DNA of 64,000 nt from Russula earlei (Eukaryota; Basidiomycota; Agaricomycetes; Russulales; Russulaceae): contig JAGFNK010000253.1 of assembly GCA_025769875.1 (NCBI GenBank), positions 1 through 64,000 on the forward strand, read 5' to 3'. Under the pieces are notes generated by a model. It was given only the letters and a program-made list of their open reading frames with translations, was not told the origin of the DNA and searched no databases. A program made the position numbers and the translations under genes. Below are positions 331 through 36,818 of this stretch, one piece after another. The number at the start of each line of letters is the position of its first letter. Within the stretch, counting starts at the first letter, position 1.

Positions 331-1186
331 GCATGTCATTATTGTCGTTTTCACGTGACCTTGCACTTGCCATTTTTGGATGTCATTTCAAGTGCAAAAT
401 TAAAACTGCTATATCTCAACAGTTTCTCAACAGATTGCCTTGAAACTTTGACAGTAGATCCTTATATACTGTATCTAGGTGCAGCTAAAATATGGGAGCC
501 TAATATTTAGTTCTTGAAATGTCAATTTTCAGGTGCTGACATGAGTGCAAAACTTTGAACTGCCATATCTCAACTGTTTCTGAATTGATTGACTTGGAAC
601 TTCAACAGTGGGATCTCATGTACTGTATCTAGGTGCAGCCCAAGAGTTGGGGTCTAATTCTTTGTTCTTGAAGTTTCAATTTTTGGGTGCAATCTGAGTG
701 TGAAATCTCAAACTGCCATATCTCAACCATTTCTCAATGGATTGCCTTGAAACTTGGACAGTGGGATCTCATGTAATGTGTCTAGGTGCAGCCAAAGAGT
801 TGGTGTCTAATTATCAGTTCTTGAAGTTTTGATTTTTGGGTGCCCATCTGCATGTGATTTTTCAAACTGTCATATCTCAACCATTTCTCGATGGATTGCC
901 TTGAAACTTGGACAGTAGAACCTCGTGTACTGTATCCAGAGGCAGCCAAATAATTGGTTTCACTTGTTGAATTTTCATGTTTTGGGGTGCTAACCCCAAG
1001 CATGATAAAATTACAGTATCCCTACAGCTGAGCACATGATATGATACAACTATTTATGACATAGTGTGCAAGAAGGGCATGTTCATGGGACCAGACAAAA
1101 ACTGACAGAAGAGCGATAAGACAAAATTGAAATGATAATGCGAGGCGTGTGTCAAGGCAGCGATTGCAATCGCATGTGAATGGGCA
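331..1186 (+). repeat. Left long inverted repeat with ~130-bp tandem subrepeats
   Basis: Inverted copy at 4010-4858. Inside, about four degenerate units of ~130 bp run head to tail, each holding a CATATCTCAAC motif, then GATTGCCTTGAAACTT, then ATCTAGGTGCAGCC. Iterated subterminal motifs of this kind are often transposase binding sites; that role is inferred here. Confidence 0.7.
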
Positions 1187-4009: not shown

Positions 4010-4858
4010 ATTCACACACAATCGCAATCGCTGCCTTGACACACACCTCACGTTATCATTTTGATTTTGTCTTATCACTCTTCCATCAGTCCTTGTCCGG
4101 TCCTATGAACATGCCCTTCTCATGCACTATGTTATAAATAGTTGTATCATATCATGTGCTCAGCTGTAGGGATAATGTAATTTTATCATGCTTGGGGTCA
4201 GCACCCCAAAATGTGAAATTCAACAAGTGAAACCAATTATTTGGCTGCCTCTGGATACAGTACATGAGGTTCTACTGTTCAAGTTTCAAGGCAATCCATC
4301 AAGAAATGGTTGAGATATGACAGTTTGAAAAATCACATGCAGATGGGCACCCAAAAATCAAAACTTCAAGAACTGATAATTAGACACCAACTCTTTGGCT
4401 GCACCTAGACACATTACATGAGATCCCACTGTCCAAGTTTCAAGGCAATCCATTGAGAAATGGTTGAGATTATGGCAGTTTGAAATTTCACACTCAGATT
4501 GCACCCAAAAATTGAAACTTCAAGAACAAAGAATTAGACCCCAACTCTTGGGCTGCACCTAGATACAGTACATGAGATCCCACTGTTGAAGTTCCAAGTC
4601 AATCAATTCAGAAACAGTTGAGATATGGCAGTTCAAAGTTTTGCACTCATGTCAGCACCTGAAAATCAACATTTCAAGAACTAAATATTAGGCTCCCATA
4701 TTTTAGCTGCACCTAGATACAGTATATAAGGATCTACTGTCAAAGTTTCAAGGCAATCTGTTGAGAAACTGTTGAGATATAGCAGTTTTAATTTTGCACT
4801 TGAAATGACATCCAAAAATGGCAAGTGCAAGGTCACATGAAAACAACAATAATGATGG
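4010..4858 (-). repeat. Right long inverted repeat
   Basis: Reverse-complement counterpart of 331-1186, with the same ~130-bp subrepeats. It begins inside sequence matching the 3' part of the transposase region of the left arm (the CCATTCACA..CGCAATCGCTGCC block). Confidence 0.7.
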
Positions 4859-24362: not shown

Positions 24363-27300
24363 CGTCTTCCTTAAGGCCTGCACCCCTCTTCAATTTCGCG
24401 CTCGATGCTTACAAAAAGCGAACTAAGAAAGACATTATAATCAATCAATTGCTTCAACCCTGCACATCCGCCAATGATGTTCTCACCTTACTAAGAGATC
24501 GAATTCCCGCACTCAGTCAATTCCAGAGCATCTCAGAGTTGCTCATCCCAACGGTCAACGTTCTCCATACCCTGTCTGCCACCGTTGACCATGATTCCGT
24601 CAAGGTGAATACCAAATCGGTTTCTCTCGGTGACCTCTCTTCTAATATCGATTCCTCAGGGATCCTCAAGTGCGGACGTTATCTTCACTGGATTAATCAC
24701 CCTTTTTTCTGTCCGATTCCTTCATCAATCTCTTGTGCAGGGTTTTTGACTCAGGTTCTGTAGGAGGCCAAAGATGATAGCGCCAGCCAAGACCAGCTTG
24801 ACCAGCTGTTCAGTTCCATTGGACCCCTCTTTCGACAGCTTGAGGCTTACTCTGCGGTCCCACCTACTTCCAAAATGAGGGATTTAGCGGGCGAGATCAT
24901 GGCATCAGTGCTGACAATCCTTGGGATTGTCACAAAGCGAATGAAACGTGGAAAAATCAGTGAGTCGATCCGACGATGGTTTCCTATCTTCCACTCAGAT
25001 TTTGGCTAGAGAGGAATTTGAAGAGGCTCCAAGGAAACTCGCATCTTAAGGATGAGATACACAAATTTACGTGTTTGATACATGAAGAGGTAGGACTTGC
25101 TATTGCGGAGCAGTCGAAGATGGGTAATCGCGAGGTGATACGAGTGGATGAAGGGTTCCAAGGAGTCAGTGGCGACATGGAAGATCTTGGCAGGAGGTCC
25201 GAAGAGTTGGACAACATTGCGCAAGGCGTGGGTGGCAACGAAAGCGACATCAGAAAGAAGGTACGAAGGATCCATGATGAGACACCAGACGTTGGTGACA
25301 AGGTTCACACTGTCCAGGAGAAGGCGCAAGGTCTCGACCGCAAATTACATCTCGTCAACAGTTCGTCACCTCGTAATTCGCTTCGTTTTTCATTCCGAGC
25401 ACTTACATCCGAACACAGGGAATCCACTCCAAGATAGTCTTTTACGATGGCTTTCGCCTCCAGATCCATCCATCAATTATAACACTGCGCGTAAAGCCTG
25501 TCACAACGGTACCGCTAGATGGTTCTTTCGAGGAACTGTCTTCAATCATTGGAAATCCACTCCTTCCTTATTGTGGTTACACGGAAAACGTGCGTTTCTC
25601 ATAACGTTTGACATGTAACATCTCCTCATCGTACCCCTGTTACGAAGCGGGCTCTGGCAAGAGCGTTCTCTGGTTTGTCCTTTCTTGACATGTTCTGCTT
25701 TGTGGAGCTCATGTATTGTCCAAGCTCTTCAATCATACAACATATTTTGACCTTGCGCGAGGATGGAAATGTTTCCTTGGCCTACTTTTTTTTTGACTTC
25801 AAGGTCGTCAATAAGCAAAACCTACAGAACTTGCTTTCCTCCCTTCTCATTCAGCTTTCTGATCAGTCTGACCTATGTCGCGACATACTCTCCGAGCTCC
25901 ATTCTTCTCACGAAGGTGGAAAGCAGAAACCTAATGATCGGGTTATGATAGAACGCCTCAAAGAAATGCTCACCCAATGCCCTACTTATATCATTGTGGA
26001 TGCTCTTGATGAGTGTCCGAGTACGTCCACTGTTCCATCTCCACGGAAGGAAGTCCTTGATCTCGTGAGGGAACTTGTTGGCCTTCAAATTCCTGATGTC
26101 CACATATGTGTCACGAGTCGGCCAGAGCTCGATATTCGGGCTGTCCTTGAACCGCTCACGGAACACCCGGTTTCGCTTCATGACGAAAGTGGTCAGAAAC
26201 AAGATATCGCGGACTATGTGAACTCTTTTGTGCGCTCAGATCCAGGGATACGAAGATGGCGAGAGGAAGACAAGGAACTGATTATAAAGATATTATCCGA
26301 AAAAGTGGACGGAATGTGAGTTTGCTCTTATTTGGCTATAATCGCTCGTGTAACATAATACAGGTTTTCATGGGTGTCCTACCAGTTGAAAGTTCTACCG
26401 CATTTCTCTCCACAACATGTTCGACATTTCTTGGACGAGTTACCGGGCAGCCTTGACGAGACATACGAGCGCATATTACGGGAGATCAGAAAGCCGTATC
26501 AGACGCATGCACGTCGATTACTGCAATGTCTCGTTGCAGCCGTTCGCCCACTCCGAGTCGAGGAGCTTGCAGAAGTCTTTGCACTCCACTTCAATGCAGT
26601 CGGAGATCCAGTCCTTGATCGGCGGTGGGAGGACCAAAAAGAGACAGTCATATCGGCATGTTCAAGTTTGGTGACCGTTGTCAAGGACGGGGATTCACGG
26701 ATCATTCGATTCTCACATTTCTCAGTCAAAGAATATTTGACATCGCACCGACTTTCGCGGTCGAGTGGGGATGTCTCAAGCTATCACATTCGATTGGAGA
26801 CCGCTCACACCATTCTTGCGCAAGCTTGTCTCTGTGTGCTTCTTAGTTTGGACGCTCCCATCGACCACGACAAGATCAAGGACTCCCCGTTAGCTGGATA
26901 CGCCGCTCAATTCTGGGTGCAGCATGCACAATTCATGGATGTGTCGTCACGCATCAAGAACGGAATGGAACGTCTCTTTGATGGTGACAAGCCACACTTT
27001 GCAGCATGGCTCGGGTTGTACGACGAAGAACGCCGCAAGACGTCCATGCCCTCTATGCGCCCCAAAAAACCTGGGGCAGTCCCGCTGTACTATGCGTCGA
27101 GGCACGGATTTTATGACCTGGTAGAAAACCTCATCGTGAAGAATCCACAGGATATCGATACCAAGGGCGGCAACTATAGCACCCCGCTTCACGCAGCAGC
27201 GGCGCAAGGCCACGGTGAGGTTACATCGTTACTACTGGATCATCTCGCAGTGGATACGAGATCCACGTTCAAGCAACGAACCCCATTACACACCGCGGCC

Positions 27301-27567
27301 GAGACAGGGCAAGTGGAAACAGGCCAGCTGCTGCTGGAACGTGGGGCAGAGGTGAATGCGCGGCAGGACAATGGGAGGACTTCATTGCACCTGGCGGTTT
27401 TATTCAATCATCCTGATTTCGTGCGGTTACTACTGCGCCACGGTGCAGACGTGCGTGCTCGTGACCACGACGGTGCAACGCCATACGTAGTCGCCACGAC
27501 ATGGCGGAGGCGGCCCGAGATTATACAAATACTTGCTGAGTATGGTGGCAAGTTGGACATGGAGTAG
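24290..27567 (+). CDS. NACHT NTPase with C-terminal ankyrin repeats (STAND/NLR-like)
   Basis: Pro-rich start MSRPPPPV, then the helical N-domain of fungal NACHT proteins (FNFALDAYKKRTKKDI; SELLIPTVNVLHTLSATV). Further exons give LLRWLSPPDPSINYNTARKA, HNGTARWFFRGTVFNHWKST, LLWLHGKPGSGKSVLC (Walker A, completed by splicing a 25-nt exon at ~25,648-25,672), SSIIQHI, YIIVDALDEC (Walker B), VHICVTSRPELDI, then winged-helix-like PGSLDETYERILREI and ankyrin repeats (TPLHAAAAQGHGEVTSLLLD, TPLHTAAETGQVETGQLLLE, TSLHLAVLFNHPDFVRLLLR) to 27567. Such STAND proteins sense a ligand, oligomerise with ATP and trigger incompatibility or cell death. Two joins, near 24,640-24,765 and near 24,960-25,010, could not be made in frame by eye, so damage or a misread intron in the N-domain is possible. 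Confidence 0.8.
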
Positions 27568-29585: not shown

Positions 29586-32044
29586 ATGTCATACGGCAAT
29601 ACTCCAACGGCGACTACAGACGTTCCGGGTTCTGCGTTCGTTCTACCCATCATCCTGTTCAAAAAGCGCCTGTCTGACCTCCGCTCGCACCCAAGTTCCA
29701 ATGGATATCAATCCTACCAGTGCTATTCACGTCTTTTACCGCACGTTCCCACACACTTACACGTTGATCAGGAATTCGGCGGAGCAATATGACAATCCTA
29801 TATCATGTCACCTGTGCGGCAGTGAGGCCGAAGGTCGCAACATCGTCCTTTGCTTCGATGGAACCTCAAATCAATTTGGGCAATACGTAGCTCTAGTCTC
29901 AACAAAGTGGAGCCACACCGATTCTCACTGTTCTTCTCGCAGAATACAAATGTTGTGGAGCTCTACTCTAGAATCACGAAGAGCGAAAGGCAGGTCACTT
30001 ACTACAATAGTGGCATCGGAACGTACGCGCGACCATCGTGGCGTTCTTTGGATTATATTACGCAAGTCGCAAACAATAAAATCGACCTTATGATAGCCTG
30101 GTAGGCCATCTATGAATAATCTGTACCCGATCAGCTATTGATTATTCTGCCAGGAATTTTGATGCCAAAGTGCTTGCTGGCTATCGTTGGTTATCTGAGC
30201 AATACCTTCCAGGAGACAAGATATTTTTGTTTGGTAGCTACACATTGCGCATCTCCTCACAAAATGTGTAATGACGTATCATCAGGGTTTTCGCGCGGAG
30301 CATATCAAGTTCGTGCCCTCGCGGGCATGATTAGCAAGGTATCATTATGTGGAACCCTGCGAGGTCGTCTTTCTCAACCGTTCTAGGTCGGGCTCATATT
30401 TCCCGGAAACGATGAGCAAATAGCCTTGTTCGTATATCATTGTTCTTTTCTTCTAATTTCGTCACGTCTCCGTTTAAGTGCATACGAATTATACGCCGAT
30501 CTCAAGCATGACACTCAGAAATTCGATACCTCCGTGAAGCAATCCGACGGCATTGAGTCAGAACGTAACTCTGCGGGTGACGATAAGGCCAACATGGACT
30601 CTTCCGAACGTCTGATGGCTGCACGATTCAAACAAGCGTTCGCAAGGCCAAATGTCAAAGTCCACTTCGTCGGAGTTTGGTAAGTCGGTATGCCACGCTC
30701 AAGGCGAGTGACATACTTAGCTTGCCAACAATAAGGGATACGGTGTCCTCAGTTGGGGTCATACGAAAGAAAAGTCTTCCTTGTACAGATTCGTTCGACC
30801 CTGAACACGTTTGCTATTTTCGACATGCACTTGCACTGGATGAACGCCGCGTCAAGTTCCTACCCGAATACGTCTGCGGAGGTGTCTCTATCCCAAATGA
30901 ATCCAAATTTATCAAGCTGTCCCGCCGCGGTCGAGATGCGCCAGATGCAGCAAACGACGCCCAACAGTTTGATGTAAGCCCTTGAACGCATTCACTGCGA
31001 AACTGAATGGGCTAAAGTGCGGATAGAGCCAGGCTCAGGTGGACGATCCCTCCATCGGTGTTGCCAAGGAGGTATGGCTTGGCAGCCGAGTATAATGATT
31101 TCTCCTACTGAAGATTATGGGGATATAATCAGACTGATTCAAAAGGAAGCGGCTCTTCAACCTCAAGTTTATCTCGCATCAAGGAGGTGTGGTTTGCCGG
31201 TTGTCATTCAGACATGTACGTACTATATGAACGACTCACGATGGTTGACTATACCTTGAGTAGTGGAGGCGGGAAACCAGAAAAATGCAGAACTGAATAA
31301 CACGGCCGTCCCGGTTCTTTGGATGGGCAATGAGGCCTGGATTGCTGGACTTGGATTAGAGCCTTCCAAGGTCGAATGGGAGTGGGAAAAGCTCAAATAT
31401 GCTCGTCCACAGGAATCAGTTAACGCTCATTTGGAAGCTGCTTGAAATATTCCCTTTCAAGCGCATTTCCTACCGTGATAAAGATAGCACCACTTGGTAT
31501 GTTAAGCCAACGCATAGATGGAATACGTCACCGGATATCCCTAGGTTGCCGCATTTGGGGCAAGGTCGGACAATAATGCCTGGTCAGAAAATCCATGCCT
31601 CTGTCGCTTTCATACAAAACTACCAACCCAAAGCCAAATTTTCGGTTGATGTTGAGGGAGGCGATTGGATTCGTATCCTTGGTACGGGTCGGCAAGACAG
31701 TTTCGATTGGACCGATCCAATAAGGGATCTGATGGAATTGGACTTGTTCAATCCTGCGTCCGTGAAACGTCTTGTGGCCTCCATTATCAGGAATAGGAGC
31801 ATCTCCGACATTGAACGCCTCCATTTCTGGGCTTCTCGGAGTATGTGGCCATTGGATTCTTATGTTATGTACACCGCTAATTACTCCACAAGCCGAAGGA
31901 CGGCAGGCAATTTTAAAAGGAGTTGAACTAACAGAACTCCTCAGAATAGCTGACGACAAAAGTGACACGTCCATATCCAAACAGAAGCTCATTCGTGAAA
32001 CGTTGTTCATGTTATTCAAAGGCGGTCAGCATTATATTGTCTGA
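29586..32044 (+). CDS. DUF2235 alpha/beta-hydrolase (Tle1-like fold)
   Basis: Start MSYGNTPTATTD. Exons spliced by eye give EAEGRNIVLCFDGTSNQFGQ, YNTNVVELYSRI, TYYNSGIGTYARPSW, NFDAKVLAGYRWLSEQYLPG, DKIFLFGFSRGAYQVRALAG (nucleophile Ser in GFSRG), KVGLIFPGNDEQIA, KVHFVGVWDTVSSVG (catalytic Asp region), EVWFAGCHSDI then GGGNQKNAELNN (catalytic His region) and VPVLWMGNEAWIAGLGLEPS. This is the full signature of DUF2235, the family of the bacterial phospholipase effector Tle1; phospholipase activity is inferred only. The reading then passes LLEIFPFKRISYRDKD and ASRTEGRQAILKGVELTELL to FMLFKGGQHYI. At ~31,400-31,450 two overlapping frames differ by one base and no GT-AG intron fixes this. TGA at 32,042 may lie in an intron: a GTCTGA donor at ~32,039 would join phase 0 to the exon at 32,116. 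Confidence 0.82.
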
Positions 32045-32115
32045 GTCATCGCAATGAGCAAGGATTAACGGCTCTGTACAAGTAGTGCCAGCGTCTGGGA
32101 TCCAAGGTCCATTTA

Positions 32116-35100
32116 TCTTCTCTCAGCAATCAGTAGCTGATAGATAAACCAGGCTGGAGACTGAATGATAAAATAGGGCGCCTGCTCTTTTGGATGATAC
32201 GACAGATCATTGAGAAGGGTATCCGTATAGGGCGAAGGTCATCGTATGGTATGTATATTTTCCTATTGGGGAACGTTGCACGCACGAACCACTTTTCAGG
32301 AGACGAGGAATTCGATGAGGACACGCTGAAGATCATATCAAGAGACAACAACTATGGTTTACCTGCAGTCCCAACGCACATTTTAAACGGCAAGTAACGA
32401 TGCGAAATACCAAAATCTTATGTCATCAGCCGCTCAAGGAGTACACCACAGAGGGGGTGACCTCACTAACAGATATTGACATTGAACATTATATTCGGAT
32501 CTTCCCAGCTTGACGACTTCGCAGATCGAAGGACCCTGCTGGCGGGGGTTGTATTACTTGCTCGTAAGTCAACTCAACATTGAGATATCAATACGTCATT
32601 TTAGTTTTAGACATCGAGAGAGAATCAATCACCAAGTCATTGGCGTACACAAACCTCCTGGAAGCTATCAAAAGTAGTGACACTACCCCGCCAGAAGTTA
32701 TTTTTAATAATGGATATGATGCTGCGCTCATTGGGCAGCTGTACCTCCTTGGTAATCGTTCAATACGTATTAATTAGATTTGACTAATACTTCAAAGGCG
32801 GAAGAGTAAATCTAAACGACGGTGTTCTATTCGCTTTCAAGTACATCGGAAAGCGGCCCTTCGCATTCGATATGTTTTCGTCCTTACTCACCAAATGTAA
32901 GCTGCCATTCCTGCGATGCTTTCAGTAGTGCTGACGGGCTCACATAGCGGGCGTGGATGACAAACTCAAAGGAGAACTACTTGGCCAACTCGTTGCAAAG
33001 GTTGACACGTCTAAGGAGGATTCCGATGGCTTCTGTGACTATTTACAGGCGTTGACACAACTCATCCGAACTCGACCCAGGGGTATTTGTGTCCAAATCT
33101 TCTAGTTGTTTTATTGACAAGACTGCTAGATATCGCTAAAATTCCGAGAATCACGATTGAGAAGATCGCGAGTCTCGCTGACTCTGACGATTATGGAGTC
33201 AAATGGTGTGGGTTGCAAGCTTGCGTTGCTCTCAAAGAAGAGAAGGAAGGCCAGTCACCGGTCAATAACCTTACGAAATGCGTTCTGAAATTAAGGAAAG
33301 AGTGGAAAGACGCTGGCCCATCGTGGCCTGCAGACTTGTCAACTGATGGTATGAAATCTGACTAGCAGCGTAATTTAAGTACCGAAAGATAGCAGGCGTT
33401 CCACACACAACGGATTTACATGGGAACCTTACGCCTGCCTCGATGGACAGGTATAGGCGATCAGCGCAGGTGAGATCATTGCTGTCTAACCACCAGCAGT
33501 TGCTAACTCTTGATGACCTCAGCTCGTACGTCCATACAAATGTCCTAGCAATGATACTCACCATCTTAAGTAGGAGGTGCAATATGTTCCTTCAATCCCC
33601 TAGAGCAACTCTTAACTTTAGTTTCTATCAAAAACATATGCAGGAATTGAGTAAGTAAAATACAACAAACGTTGGAAGGCTACTTTGTGATATCCCACGC
33701 TATCAATTCCAGGGAATCTTGTCGATCGCATAGTAGTAGGCGAAGGTACCCAGCAGGATCATGATGGATACGAAGTGTGTTACCTCTCTAACGTGACGCT
33801 GGCATCCTAATCGTCATGACGATGTCAGGAGGTAGCTTTCATTGCATTCTCAATTCTCACCGTGGCCATAAATACTCAACGTTAACCCAACCAACGTTCC
33901 AAAATAGATAGTGAGTCATATTCTTGTCTTCTGATTTAGGGTCATCTTATTGCGATGATCACACTAGATAGTAAGTCACTCGCTACGGTGAGGGCTTGTC
34001 TGTCATCCATTTAACAAACGTCGCAACAGGAAGTAAGGTTTAATTTTTCACTCACACGTTAACTCAGAGCCTATCATGTCACCCATGGCAGTTTGTGAGC
34101 TTCACGCTGTACCCTTCCGGATACTAAATACTCAACAAAATCACCTTTGTTTGATAAGATGGTGAGTTTACTCTCAGTCTCGCACCCCAATCGCATCATA
34201 TGCATTGCGTGCTTGTTACTTTAGAGACTTCGGAACATGAGCTTCAACATCAAGGTCATATCTCATTCAATGTCATCATTCGAACGCTTCCAGGACGTGA
34301 GTTTTATCGTCTATCCAACTCATTTTCTGACCTATGCTAATCTCAAGATCTCAGCGAGTGAGTTCCACCCTACTCCCTACTAGCTCCAACCTTAAGATTT
34401 GAACCCTTTCAGGAAGTGAGTTCCACTCTATTTCCCCGTCAATCGAACCTCGCCAAACGCGCACTTTCAGCTTGTGAGTTCCATCTCAGAGTCCCGCTAG
34501 CTCTGACCCGACCAATCGCACGTTTTCAGGTCGTGAGTCCCACTCTACGTCCCGCTAACTGCAACTTCGCCAATCTCACGCTTTTAGGATGTGAGTTATA
34601 CCGTACCTCTTGGTACCTCTGACCTCAGTAATTGCATGCTTCTAGCGAGTAAGTTCGTCCATACGCCCCGCTAACTTCAACCACATCATTTGCACGGTTT
34701 CAGCTTGTGAGTTCCACCCTATCTTCTCTAACTCGAACTTCACCACTTACATGGTTTCAGCTTGTAAGTGTCACCCTACGTGCTAACCCGAACCTCATCA
34801 AACTCATGCCTTCAGGAAGTGAGTTTCACCCTACGCCCCACTAACTCGAGCCTCACCATTCTCACGCTTTCAGCATGTGAGTTCCGCCCTATGTACTACT
34901 AATTTGAAGCGCTCCATTCAGACGCTTTCAGTTTGTGAGTTCCCTCCTTACATCCCGCTAGTCCAACCTTACCCTTTGCATTCTCAGCTTGTGAGTTCCA
35001 CTGTGTGGCTTGGTAACTCCAACCTCACCACTCGCCACTCGCATGGTTTCAGCTTGTGAGTACTATATTCACCATATGTCGTTGAACTTCCGATCTCACC

Positions 35101-36818
35101 ATCCGCACGCTTCTAGCGAGTAAGTTCCGCCGTTACCCCTAACTTCCAACCTTACTGTTCAAACGCTTTTAGGAAGTGAGTTCCAAGTTTTTGTCCCGCT
35201 TGCCCCGACCTTACTATTGGTATCCCTTCAGGAAGTGAGTTCTACCCTATGTCCCGCTAACTCCAACCTTACCAATCGCACGCATTCAGCGAGTGAGTTC
35301 CACCCTACGTCCCACTAATCTCAAAGTCATCATTTGCTCGCTTTCAGCAAGTGAGTTTCACCCTCCGCTCGGCTAACAGCCCCACCGATCCCGATCGCAC
35401 ACTTTCAGGATGTGAGTTTTAATATACATCCTCCTTGCTCTAACCTCACCAATCACACGCTTTCAGGAAGTGAGTTCCACTTGACATACCACTAACCGCA
35501 ACCTCACTCATCAATGTTACGTTTTCAGCAAGTGAGTTTTACCCTACGTCCCACATGACGCGGACCTCACCATCGTCGCGTTCAGTTTGTGAGTTTCCCT
35601 CTACATCTCCTTAAATCGAACCTCACCGTTCGCATGTTTCCAGTTTGTGAGTCCACTGCACGCAATGCTGTAGCAACCTCCGACCTCACCATTCGCACGC
35701 TTTTAGCTCGTGAGTTTAATCATATTTACGACCCACTCGAACCCAACCATTTACACACCTTCAGTTGGTAAGTTTCATTGTATGCGCCGCTACCTCCAAC
35801 CTTACCTCTTTTAGGATGTGAGTTTCCCTGAAGGGCCGCTTCCTCTAATCTCATTGTTGACGCGCCTTCAGCAAGTAAGCTCTTCCATGGTGCCTTGTAA
35901 TTTCGCCCCAACGTTTTCATTAGCCGGTGAGATTGCGACCAGATTCCTGTCCTTGCCTCGAACTGAATGGTCATTAACCCACCAGGTTGTTTGTACCCAT
36001 TCCTTTCCTTTCCCATCCTACGTTGATCATTGGGCTATCATCAGATTGTGAGCTCCGATTCTCCTTCACTGTGTTTATCACTCTACGGAATTTTATTCAG
36101 AAGGCGCGTCCCGTCATTCCCTCTATCTCCTGGTTTAGTCATCGTAGCCATATCAGGATGTGAGCGTTACATCCGATTCTACTGTCGAGTCAGGAACTGA
36201 TATCCCTTTCCAAGTACGTGAGAATTTATCTTCATGCTTTGATTAAGACTAGCACAACGTGTATGGTTTTAGTTGGTGAGTTACTTTCGCGCGTCGTCAT
36301 TCGTTTGTGTTGTGACCATAGCCTCCAAGGTTGTGCGTGATATCCAACCCTTTGATCTCTACATATAATCATTCTGGCCGTAAGTCGGTGTGTTGTTTAC
36401 TTTTAGATGTCTGTGATCTGTGGCAAGCTTGACGAGCCTTTACCGGCCTAGCTGGTACGTTACCGCACATTTAGTTTACAATGATAGCTGAGTTTCCTGA
36501 TTATATTAGCCATCCATTTCCAAGCGATTGGTACGTGCGTCTCCAAAATATACTGCCTCGGCGACTGATTCCCAATTTTCAAGTTTGTAAGCCATCCCTA
36601 AGATGAAGCATGTATGGTACCCTCATTCACTCTTAGATCGTCAGTAGTTACATCCGATCGTGATTTGGCTAAAAGTGATGTTCCTTTGCTATTTGCAGAA
36701 GGTAAGTTTGGGAATTAGAAGGGTCACATGAGCATTTAGCCACGGGAATTGGTAGAAGGTGAGTAGAAATCTCTGGGGATAACTGAGATTGACACCTTTT
36801 CAGATCCTCAGTATGTGA
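32116..36818 (+). CDS. Helical 3' half of the DUF2235 gene (or next gene) with single-codon exon array
   Basis: Exons splice in frame from 32,116: LIDKPGWRLNDKIGRLLFWM, DEEFDEDTLKIISRDNNYGL, HILNEG (through a 5-nt exon AGGGG, 32,452-32,456, after a GC-AG intron), LDDFADRRTLLAGVVLLAL, ESITKSLAYTNLLEAIKSS, GGRVNLNDGVLFAFKYIGKR, GVDDKLKGELLGQLVAKV, DIAKIPRITIEKIASLADSD, GVPHTTDLHGNLTPASM, then 33,443-33,651 (HQQLLTLDDLSSYVHTNVLA; FYQKHMQELR) and 33,713-33,771 (NLVDRIVVGEGTQQDHDGYE). From 33,829 the exons shrink to single codons up to 36,758; the last exon, 36,804-36,818, codes ILSM and TGA. The protein looks like alpha-helical repeats of HEAT/ARM type. No upstream start is convincing, which favours one long gene beginning at 29,586. 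All phases agree except in the degenerate stretch 36,333-36,530. Confidence 0.65.
33829..36803 (+). repeat. Tandem array of >40 introns separated by 3-nt exons
   Basis: Repeating unit ~58 bp: GTGAGTT donor, pyrimidine-rich body with CTAAC branch-like site, ~TTTCAG acceptor, then three variable bases, then the next GTGAGT. Hand-placed triplets: 33829, 33908, 33968, 34030, 34092, 34159; a 30-nt exon 34225-34254; then 34294, 34355, 34413, 34471, 34530, 34588, 34646, 34704, 34761, 34816, 34874, 34932, 34988, 35053, 35117, 35173, 35232, 35290, 35348, 35409, 35467, 35529, 35586, 35644, 35707, 35765, 35815, 35872, 35924, 35986, 36045, 36101, 36157, 36215, 36273, 36330; after a degenerate stretch 36452, a 6-nt exon 36525, then 36584, 36637, 36699, 36756. 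Introns are mostly 53-59 nt (mode 55, range 47-62 in the core). The central units are most alike, the ends diverge. A few borders deviate: GC donor after 36103, AAG acceptors before 36215 and 36330, weak gtttgt donor after 35988. Confidence 0.85.

What the first reader, a model, noticed from the sequence alone, without database searches (positions are those of the whole stretch)
33829..36818. Array of more than 40 introns separated by single-codon (3-nt) exons
Seen: ~58-bp units, each a complete mini-intron (GTGAGTT donor, CTAAC-like site, TTTCAG acceptor) plus three free bases. The frame enters in phase 0 from the ordinary exon ending at 33,771 (TAC GAA|gtgtgt), every triplet is then a sense codon, and the last exon at 36,804 gives ILSM and a stop. 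From 34,355 to 35,292 the codons spell RELVDRLLEHFLLREER, an amphipathic, helix-like peptide in line with the flanking helical protein. The introns are alike while the triplets vary (about 20 different codons). A plain satellite should homogenise both, so the triplets look constrained by coding. An exon of 3 nt cannot be bound by U2AF/SF1 on one side and U1 on the other at the same time, so ordered or recursive splicing would be needed. I know of no described gene with such a run of one-codon exons.
Basis: partly seen in the sequence, partly recalled or inferred. Interest (0 to 1): 0.97.

Follow-up and report, generated by a model that had tools for sequence, protein, structure and literature searches.

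The report
Fungal gene with single-codon exon array
The last stretch of one gene in a mushroom (Russula earlei or a very close relative) appears to be chopped into about fifty exons of one codon each, separated by short introns; it is a very unusual gene structure that still needs RNA proof.

Summary
The host gene is deposited as hypothetical protein F5148DRAFT_1226410 of Russula earlei; that model ends at 33,882, before the array. My model has 54 exons between 33,523 and 36,818, of which 49 are exactly 3 nt, with introns of 45-76 nt and an open frame to ILSM-stop. The motif YAG-NNN-GTRAG occurs 38 times against 0.18 expected (maximum 2 in 200 shuffles); no other exon length of 0-12 nt chains. 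Only the middle 28 introns are alike. Most of the 26 flanking introns are no more like them than the gene's ordinary introns, yet they too frame tiny exons beyond chance. In the core only GT, A4, G5 and AG are invariant. That is what selection on splicing leaves, and a functionless satellite does not. Not supported: an amphipathic helix beyond chance or absence of stops as evidence. No second array was seen in this genome. Best reading: an intron carrying one codon was duplicated in tandem and is spliced out one copy after another. There is no RNA evidence.

The parts
29701..33469 (+). Ordinary part of the host gene: 23 exons and 22 introns of the deposited model (46-62 nt, plus one implausible 19-nt one); DUF2235/Tle1-like alpha/beta-hydrolase domain (PF09994), then a C-terminal region without a Pfam match
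   Evidence: Exact spliced fit of deposited protein P0001; Pfam E=8.9e-71
33523..33525 (+). First single-codon exon (CTC, Leu), absent from the deposited model
   Evidence: Acceptor CAG, donor GTACGT, in frame after the exon ending at 33469
33574..33576 (+). Single-codon exon GAG (Glu)
33644..33774 (+). 7-nt exon (33644-33650) and 62-nt exon (33713-33774), together ELRNLVDRIVVGEGTQQDHDGYE, with a 62-nt intron between
33829..34161 (+). 5' outer zone: single-codon exons GAG ATA ATA GAA TTT ATG
   Evidence: longest chain 5 in 33470-34296 versus shuffle maximum 2 of 1000
34225..34296 (+). 72-nt in-frame piece holding a degenerate unit (donor-like ATGAGC), ending in the strict-pattern triplet GAC; other splicing inside it cannot be excluded
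34297..35923 (+). Core of the array: 28 introns (47-62 nt) separated by 27 single-codon exons encoding RELVDRLLEHFLLREERQDEQFFLLDQ
   Evidence: 27 of 28 introns have z 2.6 or more to the others, the last 1.0; G1 T2 A4 G5 and A-2 G-1 invariant in 28 of 28
35924..36758 (+). 3' outer zone: single-codon exons CCG GTT ATT AAG GAT TAC TTG GTT TCG CTG, a 6-nt exon CGATTG (36525-36530), then TTT ATC AAG AAG; 15 introns (35927 to 36803)
   Evidence: longest chain 6 (3-nt exons only) or 11 (3- or 6-nt) versus shuffle maximum 3 of 1000
36804..36818 (+). Last exon: ILSM and stop TGA
33829..33882 (+). Last exon of the deposited model (EVAFIAFSILTVAINTQR, after a 359-nt intron 33470-33828), which ends the gene before the array

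Best explanation
It is the 3' end of a protein-coding gene of Russula earlei (or a very close relative). About 50 exons of one codon each are separated by roughly 50-60-nt spliceosomal introns; all exons after 33,774 are in phase 0. Origin (inferred): a unit of one intron plus 3 nt of exon was duplicated in tandem again and again, each step adding one codon without shifting the frame, the flanks holding the oldest units and the middle the youngest. Mechanism (inferred): introns are recognised by intron definition. Since U1 on a donor and the factors on the preceding acceptor would overlap across 3 nt, neighbouring introns are removed one after another, and each removal gives the next donor its upstream exon. 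Core donors match U1 almost perfectly inside the intron (GTRAGT), which would make up for exonic bases that do not pair. Shown: the anatomy, the frame, invariance confined to splice-essential bases in the core, tiny exons among introns that mostly do not resemble the core, and no second array in the searched genome. Not shown: transcription, splicing, protein.
For: 38 strict YAG-NNN-GTRAG sites versus 0.18 expected, chain of 29, no chain at other exon lengths 0-12. Only G1, T2, A4, G5, A-2, G-1 are invariant in 28 of 28 core introns, while positions +9 to +24 reach at most 86% consensus; units were picked by this motif, but the chain 34,294-35,924 has no gap, so no unit was dropped. Core intron lengths vary from 47 to 62 nt while the exon stays 3 nt. 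Against the core, the 26 flanking introns score z -1.7 to 3.5, the 22 ordinary introns -1.5 to 1.4, the core introns 1.0 to 12.6; 20 of 26 flanking introns lie within the ordinary range. Yet chains of 5 (5' zone) and 6, or 11 allowing 6-nt exons (3' zone), occur versus shuffle maxima of 2 and 3 in 1000, and at most 2 in other 877-nt pieces of the + strand, 1 on the - strand. The joined gene reads 985 codons with one terminal stop. 47 of 54 array introns fall in the 46-62-nt range of the gene's other introns. Donors exactly GTRAGT: core 27 of 28, ordinary 2 of 22. AAG acceptors, used 6 times in the flanks, also occur at 5 of 22 ordinary introns, one of them the doubtful 19-nt one. GTRAGT donors are also reported as conserved at the 1-nt exon of plant VPS55 (PMC8831610, passages), and one-after-another removal has been proposed for a 1-nt exon (PMC4674806, passages).
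Against: No RNA or protein data. No relative with the array or its peptide was found (8000 candidates scored in each), so coding constraint on the triplets is untested. Conservation of donors in the core can partly be shared descent. 12 of 49 tiny exons rest on relaxed signals that I chose by eye. Branch-point motifs are enriched over shuffles in the core (16 of 28, shuffled mean 5.0, 0 of 300 shuffles as high) but not in the flanks (p 0.29-0.40). Core triplets do not look like the gene's ordinary codons (GC3 4 of 28 versus 51%). Six of 26 flanking introns score above every ordinary intron (one at 3.5), so some residual kinship to the core remains. The deposited model has a 19-nt 'intron' at 31,419-31,437, which may be a frameshift or assembly indel, so the gene might be decaying.
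Confidence: 0.72

Rival explanations
1. A minisatellite of intron origin, skipped as a whole: the array lies inside one 3-kb intron (33,775-36,803) or beyond the true gene end, and its splice-like signals are only inherited.
For: The deposited model ends before the array. Core units are clearly repeats (Tandem Repeats Finder reports two patches, 34,671-34,943 and 35,227-35,552). Core triplets form a one-step-connected set of 11 codons (P 0.026 for random sets of 11 sense codons), as expected of diverged copies.
Against: Splice-essential bases are invariant in 28 of 28 core introns while interior positions diverge. Flanking units keep in-frame tiny exons although most of their introns no longer resemble the core. 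Apart from its 359-nt last intron, the deposited model has no intron above 62 nt.
Confidence: 0.13
2. A sub-case of the best explanation: the array is spliced, but with much exon skipping, so that the protein tail is a mixture of versions; every exon after 33,774 is a multiple of 3 in phase 0, so all combinations stay in frame.
For: 2000 of 2000 random subsets of the array exons keep the frame and the natural stop. Schistosome and tapeworm micro-exon genes are described as making protein variants by skipping short exons divisible by three (PMC5825161, PMC7653826; passages).
Against: No transcript data. Strong donors (27 of 28 GTRAGT in the core) suggest efficient use of each site.
Confidence: 0.4
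3. The gene is a pseudogene or is becoming one; the array is a relic of once functional splicing.
For: The 19-nt 'intron' of the deposited model is likely a frameshift or assembly indel. Core triplets have unusual codon make-up.
Against: Apart from that spot the 77-exon model is open to the terminal stop, and splice signals in the array are intact where other positions have diverged.
Confidence: 0.12
4. Assembly or chance artefact.
For: Only that the assembly is a draft of 1374 contigs.
Against: Units differ from each other (intron interior identity 54%), so a mis-assembly of identical repeats is unlikely; chance is excluded by shuffling.
Confidence: 0.03

Closest known systems
Micro-exon genes (MEGs) of schistosomes and tapeworms
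   Same: Many consecutive short exons divisible by three, so that exon skipping keeps the frame (PMC5825161, PMC7653826; passages). The numerical rule used in PMC7653826 (at least 7 exons, at least half of them micro-exons under 70 nt and divisible by 3, a run of at least 4) fits my model.
   Different: PMC5825161 gives MEG exons as 6-36 bp, mostly in secreted or membrane-anchored flatworm proteins; here exons are 3 nt and form the tail of a fungal DUF2235 protein.
Single 3-nt and 1-nt exons (Drosophila homothorax, Arabidopsis APC11, plant VPS55)
   Same: Exons of one codon or less; one-after-another splicing proposed for APC11; conserved GTRAGT donors noted for VPS55 (PMC7392893, PMC4674806, PMC8831610; passages).
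   Different: Each is one isolated exon, not an array of about fifty.
Bicycle genes of aphids
   Same: Many micro-exons of one phase (PMC9168663; passages).
   Different: Phase 2, about 17 exons on average, aphid effectors; here phase 0 and 3 nt.
[quoted passage not shown] fungal introner-like elements
   Same: Introns arising or multiplying by duplication (PMC4974935, PMC4457414; abstracts).
   Different: Here copies stay in tandem within one gene; the core was found nowhere else in the genome by DNA search.

Membership tests
Micro-exon gene (structural rule of PMC7653826) | At least 7 exons, at least half micro-exons (<70 nt, divisible by 3), a run of at least 4 | tested here: met
   On my predicted model: 77 exons, 50 of them 3 or 6 nt, unbroken run of 3-nt exons 34355-36454
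Micro-exon gene (flatworm families) | Flatworm genes with exons of 6-36 bp, mostly secreted or membrane-anchored products | tested here: not met
   Exons are 3 nt and the gene is from Russula earlei; secretion was not tested
Bicycle genes | Internal exons nearly all phase 2 | tested here: not met
   Array exons after 33774 are phase 0 in the model
Introner-like elements | Similar introns scattered over many genes (recalled, and abstract) | tested here: not met
   1601-base core query matches only itself in the genome; single short diverged copies could be missed
Recursive-splicing ratchet points | Acceptor directly followed by donor, zero-length exon (definition recalled) | tested here: not met
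   0 sites at spacing 0, 38 at spacing 3
Functionless satellite | Divergence spares no class of bases | tested here: not met
   Splice-essential bases invariant, others not
Stwintrons (nested introns) | One intron interrupted by another at a splicing element | not tested
   Seen only in the listing
Spliced protein-coding microexons | Junction reads or cDNA | not testable with these tools
   No transcript data were on hand

The most novel reading that the evidence does not exclude
A coding intron satellite: a protein tail grown codon by codon through tandem duplication of an intron carrying exactly one codon, read by dozens of successive splicing events, with every subset of exons in frame so that one gene could yield very many tail variants. 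It would be a new way for a gene to gain sequence and an extreme test of how short exons can be.
Probability: 0.4. Interest if true: 0.95.

Novelty: new variant of a known kind. Interest (0 to 1): 0.86.

Why it matters
If spliced as predicted, it shows that a spliceosome can join about fifty one-codon exons in a row. It would make intron definition and ordered splicing directly testable, and it would be a genomic record of introns multiplying in tandem. It also shows that gene models can miss such structures: the deposited one ends just before it. [quoted passage not shown]

Tried and rejected
Tested and not supported: an amphipathic helix beyond composition; absence of stops as evidence (P 0.32 and 0.33); a descent link between triplets and neighbouring introns (Mantel r 0.02, p 0.35 downstream; r 0.08, p 0.08 upstream). 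Similar arrays at the six other contigs with DUF2235 hits (L008-L013, 9.0-9.5 kb each): no chain of three or more at exon lengths 1-12. One search listed open frames of those loci; its output was cut and used only to notice that L009 and L012 are alike. Pfam on the tail peptide: two matches below cut-off (best E 0.081). Homologues: none, whose length limit shut out long proteins; four (Russula earlei, Mycena vulgaris, Mycena latifolia, Infundibulicybe gibba); only the R. earlei one. These searches scored 7999, 8000 and 8000 candidates. Kept as a weak, post hoc hint: array peptide RELVDRLL resembles RNLVDRIV of the 7+62-nt exons (permutation p 0.0135), while the same peptide shows no match to the rest of the protein (p 0.92 and 0.66). 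Failed scripts: one search found no path, timed out; one search solved it with a shorter minimum intron. Genome-wide pattern counts (listing stops at 100 places): 207 hits against 489 for the reversed control, 294 against 434, 102 against 255, 100 listed, 15 against 11, all listed. So there is no genome-wide excess of acceptor-3-nt-donor sites; what stands out is the cluster in this array. Arrays with other consensus signals could be missed.
Full report
WHAT WAS GIVEN. I checked the sequence and then its surroundings.

ORGANISM AND GENE. The window lies on contig C253 of a 66.6-Mb, 1374-contig genome. A protein search with a hand-spliced product returned hypothetical protein F5148DRAFT_1226410 of Russula earlei, 900 aa (P0001). 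All 900 residues can be read from the window at 29,701-33,882 by an exact spliced fit (tblastn pieces). Russula earlei is an agaricomycete, order Russulales. The gene has a DUF2235/Tle1-like alpha/beta-hydrolase domain (PF09994, E 8.9e-71) and a C-terminal part without a Pfam match. Further relatives were Mycena vulgaris, Mycena latifolia and Infundibulicybe gibba; the precomputed domains of the last include PF02985 and PF13646, which I recall as HEAT repeats.

THE DEPOSITED MODEL STOPS SHORT. By the fit, P0001 ends with a 359-nt intron (33,470-33,828) and an 18-residue exon (33,829-33,882), before the array. Its other introns are 46-62 nt, apart from one of 19 nt at 31,419-31,437. A 19-nt intron is not credible and may mark a frameshift or assembly indel. 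The 359-nt stretch contains further short introns and exons in my model.

ANATOMY. In my model 54 exons follow 33,469: CTC, GAG, a 7-nt and a 62-nt exon, then GAG ATA ATA GAA TTT ATG, a 72-nt piece, 27 core codons, CCG and further codons, one 6-nt exon, and a last exon with ILSM and TGA. 49 of the 54 are 3 nt. The 54 array introns are 45-76 nt. The joined reading frame is 985 codons including the only stop, at its end. 37 of the 49 fit the strict motif; 12 rest on relaxed signals. Six array introns have AAG acceptors and one has a GC donor. AAG acceptors are also found at 5 of 22 introns in the ordinary part, one of them the 19-nt one.

BEYOND CHANCE. Strict YAG-NNN-GTRAG sites: 38 observed; shuffles mean 0.18, maximum 2 (200 shuffles); longest chain 29; spacings 0-2 and 4-12 give at most 1 site each. 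With relaxed rules (acceptor A/C/TAG, donor GTNNG, sense codons, introns 45-76 nt) the longest chains are 27 in the core, 5 in the 5' zone and 6 (11 allowing 6-nt exons) in the 3' zone. Shuffle maxima are 2-3 (1000 shuffles for the outer zones, 200 for the core). Other 877-nt pieces of the + strand reach 2, pieces of the - strand 1.

SPLICING CONSTRAINT. The 28 core introns have mean interior identity 54%. Only G1, T2, A4, G5, A-2 and G-1 are invariant in all 28. The units were picked by a motif that asks for these bases, but the chain is gapless from 34,294 to 35,924, so no unit was left out. Against the core, ordinary introns score z -1.5 to 1.4 (22), flanking introns -1.7 to 3.5 (26; 6 of them above 1.4, highest 3.5 at 33,775-33,828), and core introns 1.0 to 12.6 (27 of 28 at 2.6 or more). 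So most flanking introns are no more like the core than ordinary ones, yet they delimit in-frame tiny exons. Whether they are old diverged copies or separate intron gains, tiny exons persisted after, or without, intron similarity. I take this as the main argument against a functionless satellite. Donors are exactly GTRAGT in 27 of 28 core introns, 4 of 11 and 3 of 15 in the flanks, and 2 of 22 ordinary ones. The branch-point motif CTRAY is enriched in the core (16 of 28, shuffled 5.0), slightly in the ordinary introns (7 of 22, p 0.04), and not in the flanks (3 of 11 and 3 of 15).

WHAT THE TRIPLETS DO AND DO NOT SHOW. Triplets are less alike than intron interiors (mean pairwise identity 37% versus 54%), and their column entropies of 1.43-1.56 bits lie in the upper range of intron columns. 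Core triplets comprise 11 codons for 8 amino acids; 5000 random samples of 28 ordinary codons gave means of 22 and 14 and minima of 15 and 9. GC3 is 4 of 28 versus 51% in the ordinary exons. This suits shared descent, with or without constraint beside the donor. No stop occurs, but only about one would be expected per zone (P(0) 0.32 and 0.33). Amphipathicity is not significant. A short resemblance RELVDRLL/RNLVDRIV is a weak, post hoc hint (p 0.0135).

UNIQUENESS. The core matches only itself in the genome. TTTCAGNNNGTGAGT occurs 15 times, 11 in the array and four singly elsewhere (reversed control 11). TTCAGNNNGTRAGT occurs 102 times (reversed control 255); of the 100 listed, 17 are in the array and no others cluster. 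The six other contigs with DUF2235 hits, fetched as L008-L013, show no chain of three or more. The C-terminal region has no other copy in this genome by the protein search.

MECHANISM, INFERRED. Tandem duplication of an intron plus 3 nt adds one codon and never shifts the frame. Splicing would proceed by intron definition with neighbouring introns removed in turn, as proposed for a 1-nt exon in Arabidopsis (PMC4674806, passages). All exons after 33,774 are multiples of 3 in phase 0, so any subset stays in frame (2000 of 2000 random subsets), while retaining a single intron gives a stop or frameshift in 47 of 50 cases.

COMPARISON. Isolated 3-nt and 1-nt exons are known (PMC7392893, PMC4674806, PMC8831610; passages). 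Micro-exon genes and bicycle genes have runs of small exons, given as 6-36 bp and as phase 2 respectively (PMC5825161, PMC7653826, PMC9168663; passages). PMC7653826 notes that micro-exons coding for a single amino acid occur widely. Ten paper searches showed me no gene with an array of one-codon exons in their listings; they cover only open-licence papers and only the words used. Introner-like elements and intron gain by tandem duplication (PMC4457414, PMC4974935; abstracts) are the nearest evolutionary parallels that I saw.

VERDICT. The structure is real, absent from the deposited protein model, and very unusual. The splicing reading is well supported by the sequence and unproven by RNA.

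Noticed in passing
window 31419-31437: The deposited model fits only with a 19-nt 'intron' here; probably a frameshift or assembly indel.
   Followed up: partly
window 32452-32456: The fit of the deposited model includes a 5-nt exon after a GC-AG intron, so another tiny exon is already part of this gene's annotation.
   Followed up: no
window 396-957 and 4232-4795: Two arrays of a 154-bp repeat in opposite orientation about 3.3 kb apart, enclosing open frames; looks like the ends of a mobile element (impression, not tested).
   Followed up: no
window 25612-27567: Open frames resembling a NACHT-type ATPase followed by ankyrin repeats (NLR-like; by eye only).
   Followed up: no
window 41717, 42388, 43636, 49807: Four short arrays of a related 31-bp repeat containing TGACATCAT or its complement.
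   Followed up: no
L009 (C15) and L012 (C676): Very similar DUF2235 regions on two contigs, so the assembly may hold both haplotypes in places.
   Followed up: no
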